NCBI GenBank assembly: GCA_025451035.1
Contig: JANWLE010000076.1
Location: 35,415 to 99,414 of the forward strand
From: Solirubrobacteraceae bacterium
GTDB lineage: Bacteria > Actinomycetota > Thermoleophilia > Solirubrobacterales > Solirubrobacteraceae
DNA length: 64,000 nucleotides
Reading direction: 5' to 3'
Below are positions 4,073-60,305 of the stretch, in pieces. A program made the translations under genes and the position numbers. The notes below the pieces were generated by a model, which searched no databases, was not told the DNA's origin, and saw only the letters and a list, made by a program, of their open reading frames with translations. Every line of letters starts with the position of its first letter. Position 1 is the first letter of the stretch.

Positions 4073-6385
4073 TTAGGAGAGCATCTTCTTCAGCAGCATG
4101 CCGGCGCCCGTCTTTGAGAGCGGCTCGTTCAGGTTGCCGCACTTGGGCGACTGCACGCACGACGGGCAGCCGCCGCTGCAGGGGCAGCCCGTGATCAGGC
4201 GCAGGGCGTCGGTGCACAGCTCTTGGAAGCGGCTGAAGGCGATGCGCGTGATACCCACGCCGCCGGGGTGCCCGTCGTAGATGAAGATCGTCGGTCCGCC
4301 GGTCTGTGGGTGGACGCTCGTCGACAGACCACCGATGTCCCAGCGGTCGCACATCGCGATCAGCGGGAGCACCGCTATCTGCGCGTGCTCGGTGGCGTGC
4401 AGCGACCCGAGCAGCACGTCCATCGGCAGCATCGCGGTGAGCCAGTCGGTGCTCATCTCAAACCACAGCGCCTGTGTGGAGAAGCTGGTTGGTGGCAGAT
4501 CGAGCGAGACTATGTCCAGCTGCTTGTTGTCAGCCGCGGACCGTCGCTGGTAGGCCAACACAGTGTCGGTCACGTTCACGCGCCCGAAGGACAGCGTCAC
4601 GCCCAGCAGCTTGCGCTGGTCCAGCAGCTGCTCGATCATCGTCTCGGTCTCTCGCTTGGGCTGGGTGTACCAGTCGCCGTCGAACTCGCACACCAGCGCT
4701 CGCTGGTGCTCTATGTCCAGTTCGCGCACCTCGTAGGAGCGCCCCAGGTGTAGGTAGATCGCGCCCGGGTGCACGGTCGAGTAGGCGCGCTCGGCCTCGG
4801 CGGTGCCCAGCAGCTCGCCCGAGCGTGCGTCGAGGATCGCGAAGCTGTCAGGCGATGCGGAGCGAAGGGACACGCGCGTGGCGGGGTAGTCGCCCGGGTT
4901 ACGCGGGACGAAGCTCTCGGGGCTGCCGGCGCCGAACCTGCCGGCGCTGGAGCTGCTCCGCCGGCGCAGGCGCCCTTCGCCGACCAGCTGCTCCGCGTAC
5001 GCTTCCCAGCGCGGACCGAGAAACTCGGTGTCCTCCGACGAGAGCGGTCCCTCGTGCGCGGCGCACAGCATGTGCGAGCTGTGGATGTCCTGGCTTTCGT
5101 GATCGAGGATCGCCGACTCGACCGCTCGTTGCAGAAAGTCGTCGGGGTGGCGGCAGAAGAACTGGTCCAGCGCGTCGTCACCCGCCACATACATCGCCAG
5201 CCCCTGGCCGCGCCTGCCCGCCCTGCCCCACATCTGGCGCAGCGAGGCGACAGTCCCAGGGAAGCTGACCACGATCGCGACATCCAGCTCGCCGATGTCG
5301 ATGCCCAGCTCCAACGCGTCGGTCGCGATGACCGCGCGCAGCTCCCCGCGCGTGAGGCGGCGCTCGAGCTCGCGACGCTGCTGGGGCGTGTAGCCGCCCC
5401 GGTAGGGGACGACTAGGCCGGCCAGCTCGCGGTCTGTCTCCGCCAGGTCGGCGGTGACCCACTGGCTGAGCAGCTCCACGCCCTTGCGCGACTTGATGAA
5501 GCAGATCGTGCGTGCGCCGTCGCGCACCAGTCGGGAGAGTAGTTCCGCCGCCTCCGAGAGCGCCGGGCGGCGGGTGCCGAGCCGCTCGTCGGTCAACGGC
5601 GGATTCCAGATCGCGATCTGGCGGGCGGGGGTGGGCGAGCCGTCCTCGTCGATCAGCCTCACGTTGTCCAGCCCGGTCAGGCGCTCGGCCAGCTCGATCG
5701 GGTTGGCGATCGTCGCCGAAGTCAGCAGAAAGCGTGGTTCGGTGCCGTACGCCGCCGCGATCCGCCGCAGTCGCCGCAGCACGTTTGCGACATGCGAGCC
5801 GAACACCCCGCGATAGACGTGCGCCTCGTCGATGACAACGATCGCCAGGTTGGCGAAGAGCTCGGCCCACGCGGGATGATTGGGCAGGATCCCGACGTGC
5901 AGCATGTCGGGGTTGGTCAGCACTATGTTGGCGCGCTTGCGTATCTGCGCGCGCGACTCCCGCGGCGTATCGCCGTCATAGATGGCGGGGCGCACCTGCC
6001 TTGGCAGCCCGAAGCCCGCCAGTGCGCGCGCCTGGTCTTGCGCCAACGCCTTCGTCGGGTACATGTAGATAGCGCGGGCGCGTGGGTCGCGGCAAAACGT
6101 GTCGATGGTCGGCAGGTTGAAGCACATCGACTTGCCGGACGCGGTCCCTGTCGTCACGATCGTAGGGCCTTCCCAGGCTGAGTAGACCGCCTTGGCCTGA
6201 TGCGAGTAGAGCTTGGTGATGCCGATGCGCTCAAGCGCCGCGAGGACTTCGGGGTGAAGCTCCGCCGGAGGGTCAACCTTCCTGGCTTTCCCCGGCGCTT
6301 CCCGCGTCTCGCGCACAAGGCGCGAGTCCTGCCGGCCGGTCTCCAGCAGGTCGCTCCAGGGTAGCTGCGAGGCGGTCTTCGTCAT
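4073..6385 (-). CDS. DEAD/DEAH-box helicase with DUF1998 C-terminal Cys cluster (YprA/MrfA-like)
   Basis: TGTASGKSMCFNLP (Walker A), VVIDEAHVYRG (DEAH), SATIANP, GRAGRRGQG; C-terminal ITGCPCSGGCPSCVQSPKCGN. Start set at internal ATG 6385 (MTKTASQLPW), avoiding overlap with the divergent HAD gene. Confidence 0.87.
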   Translation of the reverse strand: MTKTASQLPWSDLLETGRQDSRLVRETREAPGKARKVDPPAELHPEVLAALERIGITKLYSHQAKAVYSAWEGPTIVTTGTASGKSMCFNLPTIDTFCRDPRARAIYMYPTKALAQDQARALAGFGLPRQVRPAIYDGDTPRESRAQIRKRANIVLTNPDMLHVGILPNHPAWAELFANLAIVVIDEAHVYRGVFGSHVANVLRRLRRIAAAYGTEPRFLLTSATIANPIELAERLTGLDNVRLIDEDGSPTPARQIAIWNPPLTDERLGTRRPALSEAAELLSRLVRDGARTICFIKSRKGVELLSQWVTADLAETDRELAGLVVPYRGGYTPQQRRELERRLTRGELRAVIATDALELGIDIGELDVAIVVSFPGTVASLRQMWGRAGRRGQGLAMYVAGDDALDQFFCRHPDDFLQRAVESAILDHESQDIHSSHMLCAAHEGPLSSEDTEFLGPRWEAYAEQLVGEGRLRRRSSSSAGRFGAGSPESFVPRNPGDYPATRVSLRSASPDSFAILDARSGELLGTAEAERAYSTVHPGAIYLHLGRSYEVRELDIEHQRALVCEFDGDWYTQPKRETETMIEQLLDQRKLLGVTLSFGRVNVTDTVLAYQRRSAADNKQLDIVSLDLPPTSFSTQALWFEMSTDWLTAMLPMDVLLGSLHATEHAQIAVLPLIAMCDRWDIGGLSTSVHPQTGGPTIFIYDGHPGGVGITRIAFSRFQELCTDALRLITGCPCSGGCPSCVQSPKCGNLNEPLSKTGAGMLLKKMLS

Positions 6386-55601: not shown

Positions 55602-56747
55602 GTGCGAATCGACCCCGATTTTTGGGCTCATAGACGCGTCCTCGTGACCGGGCACACCGGCTTTAAGGGCGCCTGGCTGTCGCTGTGGCTGCAGGCCATG
55701 GGGGCGCACGTGAGCGGTATCGCGCCACGATCCCCCACCAGCCCGTCGCTGTTCGAGCAGGCGCGGGTCGGCGCGGAGATGACCGAGCTGGCGCTCGACG
55801 TGCGCGACGCCGAGGGCGTTCGGCTCGCGCTGGCACGCCAGCGCCCCGAGATCGTGCTGCACATGGCGGCTCAGCCGATGGTCAGACGCTCGTATCTGGA
55901 GCCGGTGCTGACCTACGAGGTCAACGTAATGGGCACCGTCAACGTGCTCGAGGCGGTACGCCACTGCGGCGACGTGCGCGCAGTGGTGGTAGTCACCTCC
56001 GATAAGTGCTATGACAACGGTGGCGATGGTGATCAGGGAGGATCATTCACCGAGAGTGATGCTATGGGTGGGAGCGACCCGTACTCGAGCTCGAAGGGAT
56101 GCGCCGAGTTGGTGACCGCCGCCTACCGCGCCTCCTACTTCTCCGGGGTTGACGCTACACGCCTCGCCAGCGCGCGGGCGGGCAACGTGATCGGCGGCGG
56201 CGACTGGGGTCAGGACCGCCTGATTCCCGACATGATCCGCGCTGCCGAGTCCGGCCAGCCGATCCGTGTTCGCAACCCCGACGCGGTACGCCCGTGGCAG
56301 CACGTGCTGAACCCCTTGAGCGGCTATCTGCGACTCGCACAGGCGCTGTGGGACTCGCACGACGCCAGCGAGGGCTGGAATTTCGGCCCCGACCCCGACG
56401 ACGCGAAGCCGGTCCGCTGGGTCGTCGGAGAGCTCGCCCGCCGCTGGCCGACGCCGTTGCGCTGGCAGCTCGATGACAGCAACAACCCGCCGGAGGCGAG
56501 CTATCTGATGCTCGACTCCAGCAAGGCGCACACGCGGCTCGGGTGGCGGCCGGCGTGGGATCTCGCCAAGGCGCTGGAGCGGATCGTCGAGTGGCACCAG
56601 GCGTATCTGCAGGGCAGGGACATGCGCGCGTTCACGCTCGCACAGATCGACCAGTTCCAGCGATGCGCGTTCCCACAGGAGCGTGCCGTGAGCTCGCCCG
56701 GCGAGCGCGGCCCGGCCAAATCCTTGCGGGGGAGACGGCTGGAGTAG
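55602..56747 (+). CDS. rfbG: CDP-glucose 4,6-dehydratase
   Basis: VLVTGHTGFKGAWLSLWLQAMGAHVSGIA; VVTSDKCYDNGGDGDQGGSFTESDAMGGSDPYSSSKGCAELVTAAYRASYF; RAGNVIGGGDWGQDRLIPDMIRA. Confidence 0.93.
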   Translation: MRIDPDFWAHRRVLVTGHTGFKGAWLSLWLQAMGAHVSGIAPRSPTSPSLFEQARVGAEMTELALDVRDAEGVRLALARQRPEIVLHMAAQPMVRRSYLEPVLTYEVNVMGTVNVLEAVRHCGDVRAVVVVTSDKCYDNGGDGDQGGSFTESDAMGGSDPYSSSKGCAELVTAAYRASYFSGVDATRLASARAGNVIGGGDWGQDRLIPDMIRAAESGQPIRVRNPDAVRPWQHVLNPLSGYLRLAQALWDSHDASEGWNFGPDPDDAKPVRWVVGELARRWPTPLRWQLDDSNNPPEASYLMLDSSKAHTRLGWRPAWDLAKALERIVEWHQAYLQGRDMRAFTLAQIDQFQRCAFPQERAVSSPGERGPAKSLRGRRLE

Positions 56748-56749
56748 AG

Positions 56750-58087
56750 ATGAGCCCGCTCTCGCTGCGCCGCTACCGTGCCGAGCGTCTCTTGCGGCAA
56801 GAGTTCGAGGGGCTGCGCACGAAGGTGCTCGCGACCGTCGGCCGGCGGCTGGCTCTGCGCGGAGTGGCGCTCGACGTCGGCGACCTGGAGGCGTGCTATG
56901 CGCAGGCATGGCAGGGCCTGTATGCGGCTGTCCTGCAGGGCCAGGAGATCGCGAACCCGACGGGCTGGCTCGTGCTGGTCACCTACCGGCGCGCGATCGA
57001 GGACTACCGTTCGAGCCACCCCGAGCGGCGGGCCGAGGACATCGAGGTTGACCAGCAGGCGCGGGAGACCGACCTGGCCAGCCAGCTCGATGATCAGCGG
57101 CGTCTGCGCGAGATATTCGAGGGCCTGCGCGAGCGTCTTTCGCCGCGCGAGTGCCAGGCGGCGAGCCTCTGCTACCTGCAGGGCCTCTCGCGCGCGGAGG
57201 CAGCGGCGCAGATGGGCATCAGCGAGGCCCGCATGCGCAAGCTGATGGAGGGCAACGGCGCAGGGCAGCCGGGGGTGGCGGGCAAGATGGGAGAGCTCTT
57301 GACGATCATCCGCACCAATGGCTGGTGCGAGGAACGCGCCTCGCTGATGCGTGCTTATGCGTTTGGCATTCTCGACCCCGAGGGGGAACGCTACAAGCTC
57401 GCGATCATGCACCAGCGCGAGTGCCCCGCTTGCCGTGCGTACGTAGCCTCGCTGCGCGGGCTCGCAGCGCTCCTGCCGCCGCTACTGCTGCGGGGGGGTC
57501 TCACCGCTGGCGTCGCCGGCGCCGGCGCCGGTGTCGGCGGTGGTGCTCTCTCGGGGGCGGGCGCGGGCGGCGTGAGCGGCGCCTCGGGCGGCTGGCTCCT
57601 CGCCGGCGGCTCACTAGGCGTGAAGTTCGCGAGCTGCCTGGCGGTGCTCGGGATCGGCGCTGGCTGTCTGGCGCTGGTCACCGTGCATAAACACGGCGCG
57701 CTGCACAAGACGCCGTCGCTGGACATCGCCGACAGGTCCGCCGCGCTAGTCAGGCAGACGCTTTTCTCCACGGTGTCGGACGCGACGCCGTTCACGATCC
57801 GCGCAAAACAGCAGGCGCATCGCTCGTCGCCTTCGCGGCGCAAGCGAAATGCCATGTCGCGGCGGGCCACGAGCTCCCACCCGCCCGGCAATCTGCTGGC
57901 TGCCGCCGCGGAGTTCGGCCCAGAGCACCCGCACAGCGAAAGCGAAGTAACCCAACCGGTCACCACCAGCGCCCCCGCGCCTTCCCCGACCACCACCGGC
58001 ACCTCGAGTACCTCCACGAGCTCCTCCCCGTCATCCTCGTCGAGCAACGCCAACTCGGAGTTCGGCTTCGAAGCTCAGGGCAAATAG
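56750..58087 (+). CDS. Sigma-70-type RNA polymerase sigma factor fused to anti-sigma-like zinc finger, TM segment and Ser/Thr-rich tail
   Basis: Region-2-like DLEACYAQAWQGLYAAVLQGQEIANPTGWLVLVTYRRAIEDYRS; region-4-like RLSPRECQAASLCYLQGLSRAEAAAQMGISEARMRKLM; C(25x)HQRECPACRAY Zn-ligand pattern; hydrophobic FASCLAVLGIGAGCLALVTV; tail TSAPAPSPTTTGTSSTSTSSSPSSSSS. Start trimmed to ATG 56750. Confidence 0.85.
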   Translation: MSPLSLRRYRAERLLRQEFEGLRTKVLATVGRRLALRGVALDVGDLEACYAQAWQGLYAAVLQGQEIANPTGWLVLVTYRRAIEDYRSSHPERRAEDIEVDQQARETDLASQLDDQRRLREIFEGLRERLSPRECQAASLCYLQGLSRAEAAAQMGISEARMRKLMEGNGAGQPGVAGKMGELLTIIRTNGWCEERASLMRAYAFGILDPEGERYKLAIMHQRECPACRAYVASLRGLAALLPPLLLRGGLTAGVAGAGAGVGGGALSGAGAGGVSGASGGWLLAGGSLGVKFASCLAVLGIGAGCLALVTVHKHGALHKTPSLDIADRSAALVRQTLFSTVSDATPFTIRAKQQAHRSSPSRRKRNAMSRRATSSHPPGNLLAAAAEFGPEHPHSESEVTQPVTTSAPAPSPTTTGTSSTSTSSSPSSSSSNANSEFGFEAQGK

Positions 58088-58985: not shown

Positions 58986-60305
58986 CTAGGGTCGCGGGAA
59001 GACCTTCGCGAGGTACCTGAGCGCGAGCGGGTTACCACGCGGGCGCAGCCTGCCGGTCAGCATCGCCTTCATGGGATCCAGGCGCTGTCCGATGATGTCG
59101 ACCCAATCCTGATAAGAGACCCGCAGGCGCAGGTCAGCACTCGCAGCCTCGCCTTGAGCGACGGCGCTCGAGCCGTTGCTCACCGTCAGATGCCAGGTGG
59201 GAACGTCAGGGTCGGTGAACTCCCACTGAAAGACGGTCGGGCGCCCCAGGCCGTGCTCGGGGTTCACCTGACGGACGATCGTGTCGAACAGCAGCTCGAG
59301 CGTCTCTGGGTCGCGCTTGGACGGGCCCTCGCGCACGCCGATGATCCCGGCCTTGGCCAGCGCACGGCCGCGCTGGGAGATCTCGAGCGTCGACAGGCCT
59401 GGCGGCAACAGCGGCGGCCCGGGCAGCGACTCGACCGGCAGGCCCGCTGAACGCAGCTTGGTGGTCATCGAGGTCAGTCCTTCGACGCCCACCTCGTCAT
59501 AGGTGGAGCCGAACACCGTTACGTAGCGTTCATCCCAGCCCGGGGGCATCAGGACCTGGGCCGTGTAGCGGGTGACGTCGCGCAGTAGCCCGGCGACCGC
59601 CTGCGGCACGCCGCGCGGGTCTTCACGGTTCAAGTCGCACAGCAGCTTCACGCCGAAGCCGATGTGGCGCTGCTCGTCAGCCGCGATGTTCGCCATGCCC
59701 TGACGGAACGCCGGCAGCTGGTCGCGTTGCTCCAGGTAGCTGCAGATGAAGTGCTGCCCTGGCTGCGCGAGCGAGGCCTCGATGATGACGTGGTAGAGCG
59801 TGACCGCGGCGGCGAGCTTGGCGGGCGAGTGGTCGGCGCGCAGCTCTTGTGCCATCGTGTCCAGGCGATCGAAGATCTTGCGGAAGCCGGGCGTCAACTG
59901 CCCCTTGATCTCCCGCAGGCCGCTGGCTGCCGAGCCGTCGCCGATCCCGCAGACCTCCTGCATAAAGCGCTTGAAGAAGACGGCGTGACGTGCCTCATCG
60001 ACCTGCTGGGTGGTGAGGAAGTACTTCTGCTCCTCGTGCGGCGCGGCGTCTATGTACGGGGAGAGGTTGTCGGCGACGGCGTCCTCCCCCCAGAAGAACA
60101 GGCAGTAGTTCCACAGCGCGGCCTGGCGCTCGAACTCGGTGAAGTCCTCGCGCCACTGGCGGGCGTCCTCGCTGAAGTCGAGCTCCGTCGCGCTCCAGTT
60201 GCCGCGCTCCCAGCGGGCGTAGAGATCGTCATAGGAGATCGCGTCGGCGGGAAGACTGCCGAGGTTGGCGCTTGCAGCTGGGCTCGATGTGGGAGTGCTC
60301 GCCAT
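58986..60305 (-). CDS. R2-like (ribonucleotide reductase small subunit/R2lox-like) diiron protein with C-terminal SCP2 sterol-carrier-like domain
   Basis: Diiron-ligand pattern: GEDAVADN, QQVDEARHAVFFKRF, VIIEASLAQPGQ, IAADEQRHIGFG; C-terminal WHLTVSNGSSAVAQGEAASADLRLRVSYQDWVDIIGQRLDPMKAMLTGRLRPRGNPLALRYLAKVF. Confidence 0.88.
   Translation of the reverse strand: MASTPTSSPAASANLGSLPADAISYDDLYARWERGNWSATELDFSEDARQWREDFTEFERQAALWNYCLFFWGEDAVADNLSPYIDAAPHEEQKYFLTTQQVDEARHAVFFKRFMQEVCGIGDGSAASGLREIKGQLTPGFRKIFDRLDTMAQELRADHSPAKLAAAVTLYHVIIEASLAQPGQHFICSYLEQRDQLPAFRQGMANIAADEQRHIGFGVKLLCDLNREDPRGVPQAVAGLLRDVTRYTAQVLMPPGWDERYVTVFGSTYDEVGVEGLTSMTTKLRSAGLPVESLPGPPLLPPGLSTLEISQRGRALAKAGIIGVREGPSKRDPETLELLFDTIVRQVNPEHGLGRPTVFQWEFTDPDVPTWHLTVSNGSSAVAQGEAASADLRLRVSYQDWVDIIGQRLDPMKAMLTGRLRPRGNPLALRYLAKVFPRP

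What the first reader, a model, noticed from the sequence alone, without database searches (positions are those of the whole stretch)
56750..58087. Membrane-tethered one-protein sigma/anti-sigma fusion at the edge of a polysaccharide locus
One reading frame carries sigma region-2-like and region-4-like segments, then a C...HxxxCxxC motif typical of zinc-finger anti-sigma domains, a hydrophobic TM segment, and about 130 residues ending in a Ser/Thr/Pro-rich tail that would be extracytoplasmic. In classical ECF systems sigma and anti-sigma are separate proteins. Here the sigma would be covalently held to its inhibitor and the membrane, so activation would need proteolysis or an allosteric change. 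ECF groups with fused C-terminal extensions have been described in Actinobacteria, so the principle is not new; this architecture, its target regulon and a role in surface-polysaccharide control are inferences. The gene starts 2 nt after rfbG stops, suggesting co-expression.
Basis: partly seen in the sequence, partly recalled or inferred. Interest (0 to 1): 0.75.

Follow-up and report, generated by a model that had tools for sequence, protein, structure and literature searches.

The report
Membrane-anchored sigma factor fused to inhibitor
One gene encodes a transcription-starting (sigma) factor joined to its own zinc-binding inhibitor and a membrane anchor; the design is known from other Actinobacteria, but this one belongs to a Solirubrobacterales-only lineage whose outside tail ends in a short "EFGFE"-type motif that we also found on several unrelated membrane proteins of these bacteria.

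Summary
Observation confirmed. Window 56750-58087 (+) is one intact 445-aa gene: sigma2/sigma4 (TIGR02937 1.6e-9; Pfam Sigma70_ECF 4.2e-6), a zinc-anti-sigma motif with C193, H221, C225 and C228 near-invariant, one TM helix (294-312) and a ~133-aa disordered tail. Orthologs keep the fused frame in 20 same-genus genomes and many other Solirubrobacteraceae, so it is no frameshift or assembly join.

The principle, an ECF sigma fused to a membrane anti-sigma, is already known (ECF48/52/53; SCO4117; IutY). This is a separate clade, found only in Solirubrobacterales, without the ECF52 carbohydrate-binding domain. It sits in a polysaccharide locus in 21/21 same-genus loci but not in other genera, where it often follows a secreted Ig-like protein; polysaccharide control is genus-specific context, not shown.

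The same C-terminus ends divergent sigma fusions, the TM partner of a stand-alone sigma (18/18 complete loci) and another single-TM protein, all in Solirubrobacterales.

Best model: autoinhibited, membrane-tethered sigma released by proteolysis, with the tail motif as extracytoplasmic docking or protease signal (inferred).

The parts
56750..58087 (+). sigma-ZAS-TM-tail fusion gene, 445 aa, start ATG
   Evidence: start supported by conserved MSPLxLRRYRAERLL in same-genus orthologs
56798..57025 (+). sigma region 2 (residues about 17-92)
   Evidence: TIGR02937 17-165 E 1.6e-9; D45 L46 Y50 A53 R81 R87 invariant; AF2 helices 3-36, 43-62, 70-89
57074..57253 (+). sigma region 4 with helix-turn-helix (residues about 109-168)
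   Evidence: Pfam Sigma70_ECF 4.2e-6, Sigma70_r4_2 3.1e-5; AF2 helices
57323..57472 (+). zinc anti-sigma (ZAS-like) module, residues 192-241, C193...H221xxxC225xxC228
   Evidence: near-invariant residues in relatives; zf-HC2 in 7/31 relatives; weak RslA hit
57473..57628 (+). Pro-Pro then Gly/Ala-rich linker, variable in length among relatives
57629..57685 (+). single transmembrane helix, residues 294-312 (ASCLAVLGIGAGCLALVTV)
   Evidence: hydropathy, also in relatives
57686..58084 (+). predicted extracytoplasmic disordered tail, residues 313-445, S/T/P/A-rich
   Evidence: sequence; topology inferred from one TM and a cytoplasmic sigma
57911..57925 (+). internal EFGPE motif (residues 388-392)
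   Evidence: an internal copy of the motif occurs in most same-genus orthologs
58058..58072 (+). near-C-terminal EFGFE motif (residues 437-441)
   Evidence: EF within last 17 aa in 31/37 complete relatives, shuffle mean 0.48, max 5
55602..56747 (+). upstream rfbG-like NDP-sugar dehydratase, 2 nt before the sigma gene
   Evidence: Pfam GDP_Man_Dehyd 1.7e-34

Best explanation
It is a one-protein ECF signalling unit. The N-terminal sigma (sigma2+sigma4) is held inactive at the membrane by the zinc anti-sigma module fused behind it. A single TM helix puts a long disordered tail outside. The tail carries one or two short EFxphiE motifs that are recognised by an extracytoplasmic partner or protease. 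A signal triggers cleavage (regulated intramembrane proteolysis, then removal of the ZAS part), freeing the sigma to direct RNA polymerase. Shown by sequence: domain order, conserved zinc ligands, single TM, conserved tail motif, conserved polysaccharide-locus position in the genus. Inferred: autoinhibition, tail outside, proteolytic release, motif as docking site, and (least certain) a regulon that includes surface-polysaccharide genes.
For: Sigma profiles, sigma fold, near-invariant C..HxxxCxxC, zf-HC2 in relatives, anti-sigma hits, one TM, tail motif far above chance, the same motif on other sigma-linked membrane proteins. Precedents: IutY is released by Prc and RseP, and a truncated IutY is constitutively active; a truncated SCO4117 is consistent with the same model for ECF52 (PMC8999054, PMC5826349).
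Against: No experiment on any member. No protease gene next to it. The ZAS domain is below Pfam threshold in the query. AF2 pTM 0.52 does not fix how the ZAS packs on the sigma. In other genera the gene is not near polysaccharide genes. The tail motif also ends a single-TM protein (ssb-operon neighbour) with no sigma next to it, so it need not be a sigma-specific signal.
Confidence: 0.6

Rival explanations
1. The sigma acts without being cut: a conformational or redox/zinc switch in the ZAS module, or membrane-bound activity, turns it on in place.
For: ZAS-type modules can switch through redox or zinc (RsrA/RshA type, general knowledge). ECF41 and ECF238 extensions act by conformational change rather than cleavage (PMC8999054). 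No protease is encoded nearby.
Against: A long outside tail with a conserved end would be unnecessary for a purely cytoplasmic switch; the closest architectural relatives are expected to be proteolysed.
Confidence: 0.22
2. The EFxphiE tail is a general surface signal (anchoring, export or maturation) of single-pass membrane proteins in Solirubrobacterales and has nothing specific to do with sensing by the sigma. This bears on the tail only and can hold together with the main model for the rest.
For: The motif also ends a conserved single-TM protein beside the rpsF-ssb-rplI genes with no neighbouring sigma.
Against: Most proteins found with it are sigma fusions or partners of sigma genes; 0/492 other neighbouring genes have it. 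The pattern search was biased to EFGxE, so other carriers may be missed.
Confidence: 0.3
3. The sigma-like part is a degenerate DNA-binding or scaffold domain and does not direct transcription.
For: Scores for region 2 are weak in many relatives (Sigma70_r2 in 9/31); TIGR02937 sits just below cut-off.
Against: Strong conservation of sigma2 and sigma4 positions in 31 aligned rows; best structural matches are bona fide ECF sigmas.
Confidence: 0.08
4. The gene is an artefact: a frameshift or assembly join of a sigma gene and an anti-sigma gene.
For: None found.
Against: The same fused frame is kept in the 47 relatives examined, including isolate genomes of Solirubrobacter, Conexibacter and Patulibacter.
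Confidence: 0.01

Closest known systems
ECF52 sigma factors (SCO4117, Streptomyces coelicolor)
   Same: ECF sigma fused to zinc finger, TM region and long proline-rich outside extension; actinobacterial; membrane-tethered (PMC5826349)
   Different: No carbohydrate-binding domain; tail ends in EFxphiE; close family members found only in Solirubrobacterales; different gene context
ECF48 and ECF53 groups
   Same: C-terminal extension with ZAS-like domain and one or two TM helices, expected to be released by proteolysis (PMC8999054)
   Different: Group assignment could not be run (no ECF-group models held); no such tail motif is mentioned in the review read here
IutY (ECF243, Pseudomonas putida)
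   Same: Sigma and membrane anti-sigma in one protein, released by proteolysis (Prc, RseP) (PMC8999054)
   Different: Iron-starvation cell-surface signalling responding to aerobactin; no such partner here
Separate ECF sigma / class I (ZAS) anti-sigma pairs such as SigL-RslA
   Same: Zinc anti-sigma ligands C..HxxxCxxC; family profile weakly hits RslA
   Different: Here covalently fused in one chain

Membership tests
ECF sigma factor with fused C-terminal ZAS-TM extension (ECF48/52/53 kind) | sigma2 and sigma4 domains only | tested here: met
   TIGR02937 1.6e-9 (below curated cut-off), Sigma70_ECF above cut-off, PDB fold matches
ECF sigma factor with fused C-terminal ZAS-TM extension (ECF48/52/53 kind) | zinc-finger anti-sigma domain in the same chain | tested here: met
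   conserved C193/H221/C225/C228; zf-HC2 in 7/31 relatives, not in the query itself
ECF sigma factor with fused C-terminal ZAS-TM extension (ECF48/52/53 kind) | one to two TM helices after the zinc finger | tested here: met
   hydropathy: one TM in the query and in relatives; no dedicated TM predictor available
ECF sigma factor with fused C-terminal ZAS-TM extension (ECF48/52/53 kind) | activation by proteolytic release | not testable with these tools
   needs experiment
ECF52 | carbohydrate-binding domain at the C-terminus | tested here: not met
   Pfam scan of the full protein shows none
ECF52 | proline-rich outside region | tested here: met
   S/T/P/A-rich tail; Pro-rich in Conexibacter/Solirubrobacter members
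ECF52 | sequence membership of the ECF52 group | tested here: inconclusive
   family profile finds no hit at E<=1e-20 outside its own taxonomic family in 396 Actinomycetota genomes; best outside the class about 1e-11; ECF-group models themselves not held
Class I (ZAS) anti-sigma | HxxxCxxC plus upstream Cys/His zinc ligand | tested here: met
Class I (ZAS) anti-sigma | binds and inhibits its sigma | not testable with these tools
   inferred only

The most novel reading that the evidence does not exclude
EFxphiE is an order-wide extracytoplasmic recognition code: unrelated membrane proteins (several separate sigma-anti-sigma fusion clades, the TM partner of a stand-alone sigma, and a conserved single-TM protein) share a C-terminal peptide read by one receptor or protease, so that one outside event could release several sigma factors together.
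Probability: 0.35. Interest if true: 0.78.

Novelty: new variant of a known kind. Interest (0 to 1): 0.5.

Why it matters
It places the fused sigma/anti-sigma design in a poorly studied lineage (Solirubrobacterales) and ties it, in one genus, to surface-polysaccharide loci. The shared C-terminal motif on otherwise unrelated sigma-linked membrane proteins gives a concrete, mutable handle on an old gap: what membrane-tethered sigma systems contact outside the cell. A five-residue deletion would test it directly.

Tried and rejected
(1) Frameshift or assembly join: rejected, the fused frame is kept in 47 relatives. (2) Two TM helices (tail inside): the first hydrophobic stretch contains LPP and scores poorly; one TM preferred, crude scale only. 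(3) ECF-type promoter GGAA[CT]-N15-19-[CG]GT upstream of the sigma gene: none in 21 same-genus loci; instead a -10-like TA[AGT]NCT 12-15 nt before the start codon in about half, so no evidence for autoregulation. (4) EFGFE as a common C-terminus of any protein: 0/492 neighbouring genes; chance exceptions exist (IleRS, an antitoxin). (5) The secreted partner seen in other genera (Big/CarboxypepD_reg-like) is not next to the gene here; its best own-genome match lies on another contig. (6) The main ECF classification paper (Casas-Pastor 2021) is not held, so group numbers come from the review PMC8999054. (8) zf-HC2 search of the own genome gave no hit, so Pfam alone would miss this ZAS.

Full report
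WHAT IS THERE. The reading frame at 56750-58087 (+) starts with ATG 2 nt after the rfbG stop and encodes 445 aa. Orthologs share the start MSPLxLRRYRAERLL, which favours it over the longer in-frame GTG option. The N-terminal ~170 residues score as an ECF sigma: TIGR02937 1.6e-9 across 17-165 (just under its curated cut-off), Sigma70_ECF above its cut-off, region 4 at 3.1e-5. AlphaFold2 on 31 relatives gives pLDDT 88.5 (pTM 0.52, so domain packing is not fixed), and the best PDB matches are dominated by ECF sigmas such as BldN, SigL and SigE.

ANTI-SIGMA PART AND MEMBRANE. Residues 192-241 hold C193...H221xxxC225xxC228. In an alignment of 31 relatives H221, C225 and C228 are invariant and C193 nearly so. 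Pfam zf-HC2 does not reach the query but hits 7 of 31 relatives, an NCBIfam anti-sigma model hits one relative at this place, and the family profile weakly finds RslA, the zinc anti-sigma of Mycobacterium SigL (E 0.09). One hydrophobic helix, 294-312, qualifies as TM; the earlier hydrophobic stretch contains Pro-Pro and scores poorly in relatives too. With a cytoplasmic sigma, one TM puts the 133-residue tail outside; this is inference.

RELATIVES AND RANGE. A search of 146 same-family genomes finds the gene in 21 further same-genus genomes (one only as a fragment), mostly at 57-72% identity, and in members of other genera at about 33-49%. Named records show Solirubrobacter, Conexibacter, Patulibacter and uncultured Solirubrobacterales, among them MAG palsa_744 of the window's own genus. 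Close members (E<=1e-50) occur only in the same taxonomic family and one further family of the order. In 396 phylum-wide genomes nothing outside the family reaches 1e-20, and outside the class the best hits are generic ECFs near 1e-11. A tree gives the query family its own supported clade (98/93), apart from two fused sigmas of other Actinobacteria.

NEIGHBOURHOOD. In the genus, all 21 loci contain polysaccharide genes: nucleotide-sugar dehydrogenase, NDP-sugar dehydratase, WecG-type glycosyltransferase, DegT aminotransferase, Wzy-type ligase or sugar transferase. The immediately upstream gene varies (rfbG-like in many, divergent wecG in others). About half of these loci carry a -10-like hexamer 12-15 nt before the start codon, so the gene often seems to have its own promoter. 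In other genera no such locus was found around the gene; there it often sits directly behind, or overlapping by 4 nt, a secreted protein with Ig-like and carboxypeptidase-regulatory-like segments. The link to polysaccharides is thus a property of the genus, not of the family.

THE TAIL MOTIF. Although tails are otherwise unconserved, 31 of 37 complete relatives carry EF within the last 17 residues (EFGFE, EFGIE, EFSPG, EFELR, EFDLR...); shuffled tails give a mean of 0.48 and a maximum of 5. Many same-genus members have an additional internal copy, as here (EFGPE at 57911, EFGFE at 58058). None of 492 neighbouring predicted genes has EF[GSADE] in the last 12 residues. The same ending occurs on divergent sigma-TM fusions in separate clades of the tree (L173/L253, L174/L188/L240, L247/L268, L176); on a single-TM protein (PREVYRVYDEDEF...TM...EFxFE) encoded just downstream of a stand-alone sigma gene (18 of 18 loci where that protein is complete; these loci were chosen by the sigma, not by the motif); and on a single-TM protein beside the rpsF-ssb-rplI genes in several families (these were found by the motif, so less independent). 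The two fused sigmas from outside the order (L267, L272) lack it.

HOW IT PROBABLY WORKS. By analogy with IutY and SCO4117 (PMC8999054, PMC5826349), the fused zinc module keeps the sigma inactive at the membrane and a signal leads to cleavage and release. The tail motif is the best candidate for the outside contact, either with a sensor protein or with the first protease. Shown: architecture, conservation, context. Inferred: inhibition, topology, cleavage, regulon.

NOVELTY. The fused principle is published. New here, as far as could be checked, are the Solirubrobacterales-only clade, its genus-specific placement in polysaccharide loci, and above all the shared C-terminal motif; a limited text search combining the motif string with these taxa showed no paper on it, which is weak evidence of absence. 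ECF-group assignment could not be tested because the group models and the main classification paper are not held.

Noticed in passing
own genome G000:C8 (L145 about 4766-4935) and L192 2067-2225, L194, L198, L203, L204, L206: A ~160-nt spacer between a stand-alone sigma gene and its EFxFE-tailed TM partner looks like a structured RNA: three stems with compensatory changes, alifold -60.1 versus column-shuffled mean -6.6 (z -18), no credible Rfam match; the first stem overlaps the sigma stop codon.
   Followed up: partly
L145 4205-4783 and 4952-5773 (G000:C8): Stand-alone sigma (TIGR02937 2e-8) followed by a single-TM protein with N-terminal PREVYRVYDEDEF-like motif and C-terminal EFGFEH; the sigma gene is found in 20 of 24 same-genus genomes.
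   Followed up: partly
L048, L049, L050, L052 (cluster c18): The GDP-mannose dehydratase of the polysaccharide locus appears to carry an intein-like insertion in several genomes.
   Followed up: no
own genome G000:C96:31233-31919 (L187): A second sigma with an HxxxCxxC zinc motif in one frame but no obvious TM or EF tail, a possible soluble relative.
   Followed up: no
L239, L242, L246, L251, L252, L255, L256: A small single-TM protein (R[VI]RW..VA.. then TM, tail, EFGFE or EFGIE) lies beside the rpsF-ssb-rpsR-rplI genes in several families of the order.
   Followed up: partly
window 58986-60305: A diiron (ribonucleotide reductase small-chain-like) protein fused to an SCP2 domain lies convergent downstream of the sigma gene in most same-genus loci.
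   Followed up: no
L153 1-81 (-): Cobalamin riboswitch (Rfam RF00174, 40.4 bits), cut by the contig end.
   Followed up: no
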